From assembly GCA_021372435.1 (NCBI GenBank), contig JAJFUK010000145.1, forward strand, positions 1-46,270: a stretch of DNA of 46,270 bases, read 5' to 3'. The notes below the pieces were generated by a model. That model saw only the letters and a list, made by a program, of their open reading frames with translations, did no database searches and was not told where the DNA came from. Origin of the DNA: Actinomycetes bacterium (GTDB lineage Bacteria; Actinomycetota; Thermoleophilia; RBG-16-64-13). Both the position numbers and the translations under genes were made by a program. This document shows, piece after piece, positions 8,997 to 13,027 of the stretch (its first letter is position 1; the number at the start of each line of letters is the position of its first letter).

Positions 8997-9242
8997 TCAG
9001 CGTTTGTGGCTCCGCTTCTCGGTGAGCAGGCGGTCGATGATGCAGTCTGCGATCGCGGGCGCGGGCACGTGGTACTCACCGGAGCTGACCAGATCATGGA
9101 TGGCCCGCAGGCGGGCGTCGGACTTGGACGGAGCCGGCCGGGCCTCGGCGATCGAAGCGCCTGAAGGGAAGATCTCCGGCATCTCTCGTACCGCTGCGTC
9201 CGGCTGCGCTTCGCCGGCCGGTTTGTCACTCTTAGTGCTCAT
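8997..9242 (-). CDS. flgM: FlgM-like anti-sigma-28 factor
   Basis: An 81-residue protein. The first 40 residues are low-complexity and probably disordered. The C-terminal half, ARLRAIHDLVSSGEYHVP and IADCIIDRLL (about 43-73), matches the FlgM pattern of an amphipathic helix, an SGEY/V turn and a helix beginning IA. FlgM binds and inhibits the flagellar sigma factor FliA/SigD. The start at ATG 9242 is chosen because AGGAAG lies just upstream and the sequence above it is promoter. A longer start at 9272 would read through the promoter. No other flagellar gene is in the window, so motility is implied but not shown. Confidence 0.65.
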   Translation of the reverse strand: MSTKSDKPAGEAQPDAAVREMPEIFPSGASIAEARPAPSKSDARLRAIHDLVSSGEYHVPAPAIADCIIDRLLTEKRSHKR

Positions 9243-9252
9243 GCTATGCTTC

Positions 9253-9280
9253 CTATCGGCCGGAGTCATCAAACGGTTTA
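9253..9280 (-). promoter_or_regulatory. Sigma-28-like promoter TAAA-N16-GCCGATAG upstream of flgM
   Basis: On the minus strand TAAA (9280-9277) is followed after 16 bases by GCCGATAG (9260-9253), 10 bases before the FlgM start. The sigma-28/sigma-D consensus is TAAA-N14-16-GCCGATAA/T, so all but the last base fit. The Shine-Dalgarno overlaps the downstream edge. flgM is itself a sigma-28-dependent gene in many flagellated bacteria, which supports both calls together. Confidence 0.65.
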
Positions 9281-9333
9281 CACGCAGAGTGCAATCTCGG
9301 GTTCGGGGATCACACGACCGAAGAAGCGGGAGG

Positions 9334-10569
9334 TTGGCGATCAAGCTGATCAGCATAGAGGAGGCGCGGGCCCGGGTGCTCGCCGAGGCGTTGCCGCTCC
9401 CGGTCGAATCGTGTCCGCTGCCTGACGCTCTCGGGATGGTCCTGGCCGAGGACGTGGTGTCGTCGCAGAGTGTGCCGGTCTTTGACAATGCCGGCATGGA
9501 CGGGTATGCGGTCAGGGCTCAAGACACTATCGATGCGGACTCGGACTCGCCTTGCCGGCTCACCGTCGTGGAGACGATTCCGGCGGGTCAGGTGTCCACC
9601 CGCATCCTCGGTAAGGACGAGGCTGCCAGGATCATGACCGGGGCTCCCATCCCCAGCGGGGCGGATGCGGTCATCCAGTCGGAGGCAGTGGAGGAAGAGC
9701 AGGATGAAGTCCTGGTGTTCGAGCCCGTCAAGCCGGGGAAGAACATCCGGCGCGCGGGCGAGGATGTCATGGCGGGTGACCGGGTGCTTGCGACCGGGAG
9801 CTTGCTCGGTCCGGCGGAGATAGGGCTGCTGGCGAGCCTCGGCCGGCCGACCGTTCAGGTCCATAGGCTCCCCCGAGTCGCCATCCTTTCGACGGGGAGC
9901 GAGTTGGTCGAGGTGGACCGGCCGTTGGGCCCGGGGCAGATCCACAACTCCAACACCTACTCACTGCAGGCCCAGTGCAGGCAGATGGGCATCCAACCGG
10001 TGGTGATGGGCATCGTCCCCGACGACTACGAATCTACGCGCCGGCTCATGCAGCAGGGTCTTGAGTACGATGTGCTGATCACTTCCGGCGGGGTCTCGGT
10101 GGGCCGGTTCGACTTCGTCAAGGATGTGCAGGAAGAACTCGGAGTCGTTCGCCGCTTGTGGGGAGTCGCGATGAAGCCCGGCAAACCCCTCGCCTTCGGG
10201 GTGCGGGATCGCACTCTGGTGTTCGGCCTGCCCGGAAACCCCGTCTCCGTGATGGTCTCGTTCGAGCTATTCGTCAGGCCGGCGCTTCTGCGCCTGATGG
10301 GGTACCGAAAGACGACAAGACCTTCGTACCGGGCCATCATCTCGGAGGACGTGGTGAACTCCGACGGCCGCGTTTTCGTCGTCAGGGTCAGGGCTTGGCG
10401 TGAGGACGGCGTGTGGCACGTGAGTCTGACCGGCGCCCAAGGATCCGGGATCTTGCGTTCCATGGTTGGAGCGAACGGTCTGGCTTTCGTTCCCGGGGGT
10501 CCTCGAGGGGTGAGGGCCGGCGAAGAGGTCGAGTTTCTGCTTCTGCGCGAAGATCTCGAGGAGCCTTGA
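9334..10569 (+). CDS. moeA: Molybdopterin molybdenumtransferase MoeA
   Basis: Inserts molybdate into adenylylated molybdopterin, the last common step of Mo cofactor synthesis, in the cytoplasm. About 411 residues. It has the MoeA N-terminal domain (ISIEEARARVL, then FDNAGMDGYAVRA), the MoCF-binding domain (VAILSTGSELVEV, then DVLITSGGVSVGRFDFV), and a C-terminal barrel with LPGNPVSVMVSFELF. The start is uncertain. TTG 9334 directly abuts GCGGGAGG, so the true initiation codon may differ slightly; GTG 9289 is the next upstream option. The open frame runs further upstream across the flgM gene, but that part has no MoeA similarity. No molybdoenzyme is in the window. Confidence 0.9.
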   Translation: MAIKLISIEEARARVLAEALPLPVESCPLPDALGMVLAEDVVSSQSVPVFDNAGMDGYAVRAQDTIDADSDSPCRLTVVETIPAGQVSTRILGKDEAARIMTGAPIPSGADAVIQSEAVEEEQDEVLVFEPVKPGKNIRRAGEDVMAGDRVLATGSLLGPAEIGLLASLGRPTVQVHRLPRVAILSTGSELVEVDRPLGPGQIHNSNTYSLQAQCRQMGIQPVVMGIVPDDYESTRRLMQQGLEYDVLITSGGVSVGRFDFVKDVQEELGVVRRLWGVAMKPGKPLAFGVRDRTLVFGLPGNPVSVMVSFELFVRPALLRLMGYRKTTRPSYRAIISEDVVNSDGRVFVVRVRAWREDGVWHVSLTGAQGSGILRSMVGANGLAFVPGGPRGVRAGEEVEFLLLREDLEEP

Positions 10570-10606
10570 CCAAGGGGCGCGCGGGGCCGGTTCAGTGACT
10601 CCATGG

Positions 10607-10635
10607 TTGCCTCGGCCCCGTGGTGGGGATACAAT
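10607..10635 (+). promoter_or_regulatory. Sigma-70-type promoter TTGCCT-N17-TACAAT
   Basis: TTGCCT (10607-10612) and TACAAT (10630-10635) are separated by 17 bases. It lies 38 bases after the moeA stop and points towards the structured RNA candidate and the small HTH gene. Start of transcription is expected near 10642. Confidence 0.7.
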
Positions 10636-10640
10636 GATGA

Positions 10641-10751
10641 TGATGAGTCGGTTACGTCGACATTGGCGTGGGAGTGATGCGCACGGCATACCCGCGTCGG
10701 TGCCAAGGGTGGTTCGGGAAAGTCCGGTGGCCTGTGCCGCTGGGCTTTTTT
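10641..10751 (+). ncRNA. Candidate structured RNA or attenuator leader, about 110 nt
   Basis: The segment lies between a good promoter and an intrinsic terminator and can fold into three helices. Helix 1 is GTCG (10647-10650) with CGAC (10658-10661). Helix 2 is TTGGC-GTGGG (10663-10672) with CCCGC (10691-10695) and GCCAA (10702-10706), capped by ATGC/GCAT (10677-10689). Helix 3 is the terminator at 10724-10743. The joining stretch GGGTGGTTCGGGAAAGTCC is unpaired in this model. It could be a free small RNA or a riboswitch/attenuator controlling the gene at 10797. I do not recognise the class. Confidence 0.45.
10724..10751 (+). terminator. Intrinsic terminator ahead of the HTH gene
   Basis: CCGGTGGC (10724-10731) pairs with GCCGCTGG (10736-10743) through eight pairs including two G-U wobbles, with loop CTGT. 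It is followed by GC and six T (10746-10751). It lies 45 bases upstream of ATG 10797, the classic position of a conditional leader terminator. Confidence 0.65.
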
Positions 10752-10796
10752 GTTTGTGGGCTTTCGGGTGATTCTCTACCCTGGAAAGGAGATCTG

Positions 10797-10982
10797 ATGG
10801 CCAACCACTTCACCCCCGAAGAGCTGGCAGCGGAGTTTGGGATCGAGACTCGGGATGTGATCCGGCTCTGTGTCAAAGAAGGCATCCCCATCTACAAGGG
10901 GAAGATAGATCGCAGTCTTCTAACGGCGGTGATAAAGGCCAAAGGTATCCGGCTTCCCAAGACCCAAGGGGCTGCCGTCTAG
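10797..10982 (+). CDS. Small helix-turn-helix-like protein
   Basis: A 61-residue protein. Residues 1-35 (FTPEELAAEFGIETRDVI, then KEGIPIYKGKIDR) look like a winged or MerR/excisionase-type HTH: a helix beginning FTPEELA, a turn, a recognition helix, and a short basic strand. A Lys-rich tail follows. A DNA-binding role is therefore likely, but no family name can be given. ATG 10797 has AAAGGAG 5 bases upstream. The open frame continues upstream, but that part covers the terminator and is not coding-like. The stop overlaps the stop of the convergent exonuclease gene as CTAG. Confidence 0.7.
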   Translation: MANHFTPEELAAEFGIETRDVIRLCVKEGIPIYKGKIDRSLLTAVIKAKGIRLPKTQGAAV

Positions 10983-12991
10983 AAGCTGGCCGGCCTCGTC
11001 TTCTCACCCGCGGAGGGTATCTTCGACAGGAGGGTATTCGCTTCCCTCGCCAGGCGGATCCTAGTCGCCTCCCAGTCGGCCGCGTCGGCTTCTGGCCTCG
11101 GGATGGACGCCTTCGTTATGTGTTCGGCCTCATAGAACCAACGCCGGACTGCAAGGAGCGAGTCGAGTTCTTGTTGCCCTACCGCCACTAGGTCGCCGCC
11201 CGTCCTGCCTCGGCATCCTCGTGCACCGGCGCGCGCAGCCTCGACTGCTGCGCCGATCGCCGGTTCGACACGGCCCGGGTACAACGAGACCGGCTCAAGG
11301 AGCCTGCCGTCGCACACCAGGTTCAGTCTGACCGACGGGCCGCCCCCGTTACCGGCCTGCGGCCAGAGAAGCGCGAACCGAAGGCTCCGGGCCTCAGCCA
11401 ACGAGGCGTACGAACGGCGGACGCTCATCAGATGTTCACACGCCTTCTTGATTTCTTGTGCCTCTTCGTATCGCCGCTGCCGGGAGAGGCGTCTTGCCTC
11501 GTTGTCCGCGTACTCCACAGGGTCCGGCAGGCCGGTGTCGACCCGGCCGGCCAGCCAAGCGACGATCCTCAGCACGAGCTCATCGTGCCGGAGTTTCGTC
11601 CGTGGATCGGCGACGCAGGGCGCAAGACACCGGCCGTGCTCTGAGCGGGCGCAGGGACGGCCATTCACTCTCTGTGGACAATGGCGGATGGGGTAACACC
11701 GTTGGAGGAGATCGAGGGCGGCGTGCAATCGCGCGCGGCCGCGAAAAGGCCCCATGACCAGCGGCGCGCCGGGAGGACGGCTCGAGGCATCCGAGCCGTC
11801 CTCGGCGCCGCCGATCCACTTAGGTGCGCGGCTGCTCGTCGAGAGGCTGAGTCCTCGTCCGGAATGACCGACTCTGATGTAGGCGTATGTCTCCGGCCGG
11901 GTGCCGCATATGTTGCAGGGAGGCCGGTGCTCCCCTATGAGGTGTTGTTCACGGACCACCGCCTCCAGGGGCGTGCAGGCTTCATCCCAATCTATTCGCT
12001 CTACGAGCCGCACCGCCTGGCGCACTCTGCGGGCATTGCCGGCACCGGCTATGAAGTGCGAACGGACCTCCTCGCCGAGCCTATCGGCTTTGCCCACGTA
12101 GACGATACGCCCCTCCTTGTCCACGAAGCGGTAGGTGCCCGGACACTTCGGCAGGTCGCGGGTCAAACGCAGCTTGTCGAGGGCGGACCGCGATGAGCGA
12201 TCCAAGTACGCACGGAGCTCGCCCAGCCGGGTGATGCCCTGATCCTGCAGGCGGCCGGCCAAATTCAGGAAAATATATGCGGCGGCCTGGGCATCGGCGA
12301 GGGCGCGATGACAGGGGACGACCGGGGCGCCAAGGGCCTCGGCGACCGTGTGGAGACGGTAGTTGGGCAGGCCTGGAGCCAGGGCTCGGGCCAGCGGTAA
12401 GGTGTCGATGGCTCCGTCACCCAGCCTGCACCCTTTGAGCCTTCCCAGTTCGTAGTTGAGGAACCCGACATCAAAGGCCGCATTGTGCGCGACGACCACC
12501 GCGCCGTCGAGAAACCGGACAAGGTCGGGGATGACGTTCTCAATGCGAGGAGCGCCGGCCACCATCTCTTGAGAGATGCCGGTGAGTCGAGTGATCATTG
12601 GAGGGATCGGCCGCAGAGGGTTGACCAGAGTAGCGAAGTGGTCCACTACCTGGAATCCCTCGATCCTGACGGCCCCGATCTCGGTGATCTTGCTCGTCCC
12701 GGCTCTGGCCCCCGTGGTCTCCAGGTCTAAGGATATGAAAGGGACATCGGCAAGGTCGGGATCGGGCAACTCCCAATGGCATAGGGATAAGGGACTGTCT
12801 TCAGCACCGTCCCATATGAAGCGCCCGTCGTTTCGCACAAGGGCGGCGAGGATCTCGCGGCACAGGTCCGCCGGCGCGTCGGGGCAGGCGACAAGCATCC
12901 GCGCCGCCTCGACGGCGTCGAGCGGCTCTCCGCGGACCAGCAGGGTCTCGTGGAGCCGGTCGGCCACGCTCAGCGAAAGCTGTAACTGCAT
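10979..12991 (-). CDS. DEDDh exonuclease fused to UvrC-like GIY-YIG endonuclease
   Basis: A 670-residue DNA repair fusion. Residues about 82-250 form a DnaQ-type 3'-5' exonuclease: ISLDLETTG supplies the Asp/Glu pair and VVAHNAAFDVGFL the second Asp. Residues about 283-365 form a GIY-YIG domain (GTYRFVDKEGRIVYVGKA), as in UvrC and Cho. CARSEHGRCLAPC, resembling UvrC's Cys cluster, and a UVR-like helix pair (RRLSRQRRYEEAQEIKKACE) follow. The RNase H-like half of UvrC is absent. This architecture is common in Actinomycetota, for example mycobacterial Rv2191. It probably takes part in damage excision. An N-terminal segment of about 80 residues is unassigned. Confidence 0.85.
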   Translation of the reverse strand: MQLQLSLSVADRLHETLLVRGEPLDAVEAARMLVACPDAPADLCREILAALVRNDGRFIWDGAEDSPLSLCHWELPDPDLADVPFISLDLETTGARAGTSKITEIGAVRIEGFQVVDHFATLVNPLRPIPPMITRLTGISQEMVAGAPRIENVIPDLVRFLDGAVVVAHNAAFDVGFLNYELGRLKGCRLGDGAIDTLPLARALAPGLPNYRLHTVAEALGAPVVPCHRALADAQAAAYIFLNLAGRLQDQGITRLGELRAYLDRSSRSALDKLRLTRDLPKCPGTYRFVDKEGRIVYVGKADRLGEEVRSHFIAGAGNARRVRQAVRLVERIDWDEACTPLEAVVREQHLIGEHRPPCNICGTRPETYAYIRVGHSGRGLSLSTSSRAPKWIGGAEDGSDASSRPPGAPLVMGPFRGRARLHAALDLLQRCYPIRHCPQRVNGRPCARSEHGRCLAPCVADPRTKLRHDELVLRIVAWLAGRVDTGLPDPVEYADNEARRLSRQRRYEEAQEIKKACEHLMSVRRSYASLAEARSLRFALLWPQAGNGGGPSVRLNLVCDGRLLEPVSLYPGRVEPAIGAAVEAARAGARGCRGRTGGDLVAVGQQELDSLLAVRRWFYEAEHITKASIPRPEADAADWEATRIRLAREANTLLSKIPSAGEKTRPASF

Positions 12992-13027
12992 CTACGACCG
13001 GTCAGATTCCGGGAAAGGGGCGTTTCC

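What the first reader, a model, noticed from the sequence alone, without database searches (positions are those of the whole stretch)
10607..10796. Promoter, three-helix RNA and terminator upstream of a small HTH gene: candidate new riboregulator
TTGCCT-N17-TACAAT is followed by about 110 nt that fold into two nested hairpins and a terminator (8 pairs plus T6). The gene for a 61-residue HTH-like protein starts 45 bases later with its own AAAGGAG. This is the arrangement of a leader attenuator or of a free small RNA. The joint GGGTGGTTCGGGAAAGTCC faintly resembles parts of cobalamin riboswitch and RNase P sequences but fits neither. Position after moeA makes a Mo-related ligand thinkable, though nothing proves it.
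Basis: seen in the sequence. Interest (0 to 1): 0.7.

Follow-up and report, generated by a model that had tools for sequence, protein, structure and literature searches.

The report
Conserved mini-ORF terminator leader
In front of a small DNA-binding-protein gene sits a roughly 110-nt transcript that appears to start directly with a start codon, folds a hairpin and ends in a terminator; this layout is kept across many Thermoleophilia bacteria and probably throttles the gene, but it matches no known RNA family and its exact mechanism is untested.

Summary
In detail: promoter, hairpin P1, terminator, then a 61-residue HTH gene with its own SD. The leader is not a lone curiosity. The HTH family is restricted to one class (Thermoleophilia), and two large groups keep the same layout: the window's own family and Gaiellaceae-type genomes. 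In nearly every leader a start codon lies 6-10 nt after the -10 box, so the transcript looks leaderless (AUG at its 5' end). In Gaiellaceae-type genomes the mini-ORF is 8-10 codons and its stop, almost always UGA, lies in the loop of a covarying hairpin. In the window's family the start is kept but the stop is not. Solirubrobacterales-type orthologues have a short plain 5' UTR. The leader occurs once per genome, beside this gene; no Rfam family matches. The terminator lies so close to the gene that expression must depend on read-through. Best reading: a cis-acting attenuator with a leaderless uORF as an input. I found no conserved antiterminator and no conserved peptide, so it is not a classical trp/whiB7-type attenuator, and ribosome control is inferred. 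A molybdenum ligand or trans-acting sRNA is not supported. Nothing was tested experimentally.

The parts
10607..10635 (+). promoter: -35 TTGCCT (10607-10612), 17-nt spacer, -10 TACAAT (10630-10635)
   Evidence: same position in family members
10643..10645 (+). inferred leaderless start codon and transcription start (ATG 7 nt after the -10); in-frame ATGs also at 10637 and 10640
   Evidence: RTG 6-9 nt after the -10 in 17 of 17 family leaders (L019 read by eye); CM boundary 10643
10643..10771 (+). upstream ORF opened by that ATG, 42 codons, TGA at 10769-10771; its stop position is not conserved in this family
10661..10702 (+). hairpin P1 (outer stem 10661-10672/10691-10702, inner 10677-10680/10686-10689)
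   Evidence: kept in 8 family leaders with some compensatory changes
10715..10752 (+). intrinsic terminator: stem 10715-10731/10736-10752, U-tract 10746-10751
10643..10754 (+). whole leader RNA, about 110 nt, as matched by covariance model R2
10785..10791 (+). Shine-Dalgarno AAAGGAG of the HTH gene
10797..10982 (+). gene for a 61-aa winged-HTH protein (MerR/Xis/BldC-like predicted fold), restricted to its class

Best explanation
A cis-acting transcription attenuator of the HTH gene, with a leaderless upstream ORF built into it. RNA polymerase starts at or next to the ATG at 10643, so the RNA begins with a start codon and a 70S ribosome can load without a Shine-Dalgarno. The ORF runs straight into hairpin P1, which a translating ribosome must open. 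About 80 nt from the start lies a strong intrinsic terminator, followed almost at once by the SD and start of the HTH gene, leaving little or no room for another promoter; HTH mRNA therefore arises by read-through, and most starts should yield a roughly 110-nt RNA. Shown by comparison: conserved start codon after the -10, conserved P1 and terminator, single copy in cis, and (in Gaiellaceae-type genomes) an 8-10-codon frame whose stop lies in the P1 loop. Inferred: that the ORF is translated, that termination is frequent, and that translation of the ORF sets the level of read-through. The most likely route is that P1 acts as a pause or timing hairpin opened by the ribosome; whether translation raises or lowers read-through cannot be told.
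For: 68 of 69 Gaiellaceae-type leaders have ATG/GTG 6-10 nt after the -10; 67 of these ORFs are exactly 8-10 codons, with no such clustering in the other frames. At least 7 length changes on the tree, all multiples of 3. The stop lies in a hairpin loop: own arms fold better than swapped arms (-14.35 vs -12.21 +/- 0.29); RNAalifold finds P1 and terminator unaided; 0/500 shuffles reach the covariation score; a P1 pair is the top covarying pair against a tree-simulated null (E 0.003 in the P1 region, E 0.04 over the whole leader). Terminator to HTH ATG is typically 24-30 nt in Gaiellaceae-type genomes. Window family: start 6-9 nt after the -10 in 17 of 17, start-to-terminator 75-82 nt in 15 of 17, structure kept. 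Contrast group: 14 Solirubrobacterales-type orthologues have 23-47-nt 5' UTRs, RTG in that position in only 3, and no terminator seen. One copy per genome, next to the gene. [quoted passage not shown]
Against: No conserved antiterminator: terminator probability stays about 0.99 whether or not the ORF is masked by a ribosome, and neither spacer nor P1 matches its own terminator arm better than a swapped one. No conserved peptide or regulatory codons. In the window's family the ORF's stop is not conserved and P1 is not unusually stable in the window itself (z -0.09). Among single P1 pairs only one passes the tree-simulated null, and the P1 region's second-ranked pair lies outside the stem register. 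No expression data.
Confidence: 0.55

Rival explanations
1. Fixed throttle: the terminator merely keeps HTH expression low by constant partial read-through, and the ORF and P1 serve RNA stability or ribosome loading rather than regulation.
For: No alternative RNA fold found; the peptide is not conserved.
Against: Seven in-frame length changes and a stop kept in the hairpin loop are more than a throttle needs; Solirubrobacterales-type orthologues do without any leader.
Confidence: 0.2
2. The roughly 110-nt RNA is itself the product: a small RNA or micro-protein mRNA acting in trans, the HTH gene being fed by leakage.
For: Own promoter and terminator; primary sequence of the terminator is conserved within each group.
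Against: No convincing copy away from the HTH gene in 199 class genomes or the 18 family genomes (strict filters may lose weak copies); peptide not conserved; terminator abuts the HTH gene.
Confidence: 0.12
3. Protein-controlled leader: the HTH protein or another protein binds the leader and changes termination (autoregulation).
For: The leader is tied to this one gene in two groups of the class; the HTH has a small nucleic-acid-binding fold.
Against: The HTH family also exists without the leader; the fold is a DNA-binding type; no conserved protein site was identified.
Confidence: 0.1

Closest known systems
whiB7/wblC uORF attenuator (mycobacteria, Streptomyces)
   Same: Actinobacterial; uORF and Rho-independent terminator ahead of a small regulator gene, read-through deciding expression (PMC11550727).
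   Different: There an antiterminator forms when uORF translation fails; none was found here.
trp-type and ilvB1 amino-acid attenuators
   Same: Leader ORF, first hairpin, terminator; the M. tuberculosis ilvB1 uORF ends in UGA ahead of a terminator (PMC13236596). The stop codon in the loop of the first hairpin resembles E. coli trpL (own knowledge, not tested).
   Different: No run of regulatory codons and no conserved competing hairpin.
Leaderless short ORFs of mycobacteria, including polycysteine attenuators
   Same: Short ORF at the very 5' end; ATG/GTG at +1 suffices for initiation (PMC4633059).
   Different: No cysteine run; a transcription terminator is present. The polycysteine paper (Canestrari 2020) was not held and is known here only from a citation.
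vmlR / ARE-ABCF uORF attenuators
   Same: Very short uORF, hairpins, terminator; RNA polymerase pausing contributes in vmlR (PMC9226507, PMC12421871).
   Different: uORF with its own ribosome binding site and an anti-antiterminator/antiterminator switch; here leaderless and no switch found.

Membership tests
uORF-dependent transcription attenuator (trp/whiB7/vmlR kind) | Intrinsic terminator between promoter and regulated gene | tested here: met
   (by sequence and structure, not by experiment)
uORF-dependent transcription attenuator (trp/whiB7/vmlR kind) | Conserved upstream ORF in the leader | tested here: met
   start and 8-10-codon frame in Gaiellaceae-type genomes; in the window's family only the start is conserved
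uORF-dependent transcription attenuator (trp/whiB7/vmlR kind) | Mutually exclusive antiterminator | tested here: not met
   on Gaiellaceae-type leaders: no switch in fold ensembles, no covariation with the terminator arm; a non-covarying or protein-stabilised one is not excluded
uORF-dependent transcription attenuator (trp/whiB7/vmlR kind) | Regulatory codons or arrest peptide conserved | tested here: not met
   mini-ORF peptides differ between species
uORF-dependent transcription attenuator (trp/whiB7/vmlR kind) | Termination responds to uORF translation | not testable with these tools
   needs expression data or reporters
Known Rfam family (riboswitches, RNase P, sRNAs) | Match at the curated gathering score | tested here: not met
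   window 9000-13000: best overlapping match ar35 22 bits vs gathering 45; ten relatives: no leader match
Trans-acting small RNA | Occurs independently of the neighbouring gene | tested here: not met
Leaderless mRNA | Transcription start at the A of ATG or G of GTG | not testable with these tools
   spacing from the -10 is consistent but the start site is inferred
BldC / excisionase / MerR-type HTH | Winged-HTH fold | tested here: inconclusive
   model pLDDT 84; BldC 6ama Z 6.2 (rmsd 2.6, 49 aligned), phage Xis 4j2n Z 6.0, Z under 8; Pfam HTH_17 14.5 bits, below its cut-off 27

The most novel reading that the evidence does not exclude
An attenuator without an antiterminator in which the sensed event is translation termination: a leaderless ribosome must reach a UGA stop placed inside a hairpin loop, and the opening of that hairpin, not an alternative RNA fold, decides whether RNA polymerase passes the terminator.
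Probability: 0.12. Interest if true: 0.75.

Novelty: new variant of a known kind. Interest (0 to 1): 0.5.

Why it matters
It gives a leader RNA family with no Rfam match, found in two large groups of a little-studied bacterial class and tied to a class-specific small DNA-binding protein. Its conserved geometry (start codon at the 5' end, stop codon in a hairpin loop, terminator abutting the gene) without a detectable antiterminator is a testable case of translation-linked termination on leaderless RNAs.

Tried and rejected
Antiterminator by masked folding and arm swapping: none. Molybdenum ligand: moeA is adjacent in the window and the family genomes checked, not in Gaiellaceae-type contexts. 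Rfam: none. Trans copies: none convincing; two marginal R1 hits at E about 0.007 in G049 and G037 were fetched but not examined. Coding constraint in the window family's ORF: codons of four close leaders compared by eye, no third-position excess, not computed. PDB sequence search for the HTH: nothing significant. Papers on Thermoleophilia leaders: none found in the held library. Two cited papers were not held. Start and stop choices in the scripts used length filters; the count without a length filter is, where the promoter was still chosen by score. The tree was built partly from the P1 columns themselves.

Full report
Observation. The promoter, hairpin, terminator, SD and HTH gene are present at the stated places. 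The terminator is stronger than described (12-17 pairs). Energy alone is not striking (z -1.75), so the weight rests on comparison.

Relatives. The window lies in contig C115 of genome G000. A 61-genome search found the HTH gene in 41; an alignment search found it in 215 of 299 class genomes, and in a phylum-wide sample the 22 genomes with a hit were all of the same class. Assignment of the other handles to orders, Solirubrobacterales included, is my inference.

Gaiellaceae-type leaders. Of 69 leaders with a scored promoter, 68 have ATG or GTG 6-10 nt after the -10, and 67 of these open a frame of 8-10 codons; the two other frames show no such clustering. In the selected set of 63 the stop is TGA 62 times and TAG once, whereas the HTH genes themselves mostly end in TAG (56 TAG, 16 TGA, 9 TAA). 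Length changed at least seven times on the tree, always by whole codons. The stop lies in the loop of hairpin P1, which RNAalifold finds with the terminator in a 30-sequence alignment; 27 cells change on both sides against 7.7 in shuffles. Against alignments simulated on a tree, one P1 pair stands out; the other P1 pairs vary too little or do not pass. The terminator ends typically 24-30 nt before the HTH start. Model R1 finds one copy in each of 37 f4 genomes, next to the HTH gene wherever that gene is on the contig (in G109 the contig ends first).

Window family. In 17 leaders a start codon lies 6-9 nt after the -10 (L019 read by eye; L013 has lost or displaced the leader). Start-to-terminator distance is 75-82 nt in 15 of 17. 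Stops fall before, inside or beyond the terminator, so the frame length is not under visible selection. P1 in eight leaders is 85% paired, with three pairs changed on both sides; its stability against shuffles varies. Model R2 finds the leader at the HTH locus in 16 of 18 family genomes, the weakest at E 0.12.

Contrast group. Fourteen Solirubrobacterales-type orthologues have 23-47 nt between -10 and start, no terminator seen, and a start codon at the comparable place in only three. The leader is therefore not a by-product of the gene's promoter.

Mechanism. With 45 nt (window) or fewer between U-tract and HTH start, part of it SD, read-through is the likely source of HTH mRNA; no second promoter was found in the window by the consensus scan. 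Leaderless initiation on ATG/GTG is established in mycobacteria, and uORF attenuators are known there and in Streptomyces. The usual switch was looked for and not found. I therefore describe the element as working like a uORF attenuator, without filing it as a classical one. That ribosomes translate the ORF and that this alters termination are inferences.

The HTH protein. The model resembles Xis, BldC and MerR-type winged helices at Z 4-6.5, below the level that marks clear homology; DNA binding is likely but not shown.

Noticed in passing
HTH promoters of Gaiellaceae-type leaders and L142-L153, L160, L161: CGTC at exactly -16 from the -10 box in 44 of 63 Gaiellaceae-type promoters and 9 of 14 Solirubrobacterales-type ones, 0 of 17 in the window's family: possible operator in the promoter spacer, perhaps for the HTH protein itself. 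Not tested against other promoters.
   Followed up: partly
L030, L031 (family f2): Upstream of the HTH gene a 10- or 11-codon ORF ending in TAG follows a -10-like box, then a GC-rich hairpin without a clear U-tract: possibly a third form of the leader.
   Followed up: partly
Gaiellaceae-type leaders, between P1 and terminator: A purine-rich GGAGG/GAGGG-like stretch recurs in the spacer, resembling a Shine-Dalgarno but with no start codon at a suitable distance.
   Followed up: no
L006 (G003:C17): The upstream ORF runs through the terminator and overlaps the HTH gene in another frame.
   Followed up: no
window 9344-12991; L176-L178: moeA, leader-HTH and a convergent DnaQ/UvrC-like gene are neighbours in the window; moeA-like genes are also beside the HTH gene in L176, L177 and L178.
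   Followed up: partly
L028, L109: Two terminator-like hairpins in series between mini-ORF and HTH gene.
   Followed up: no
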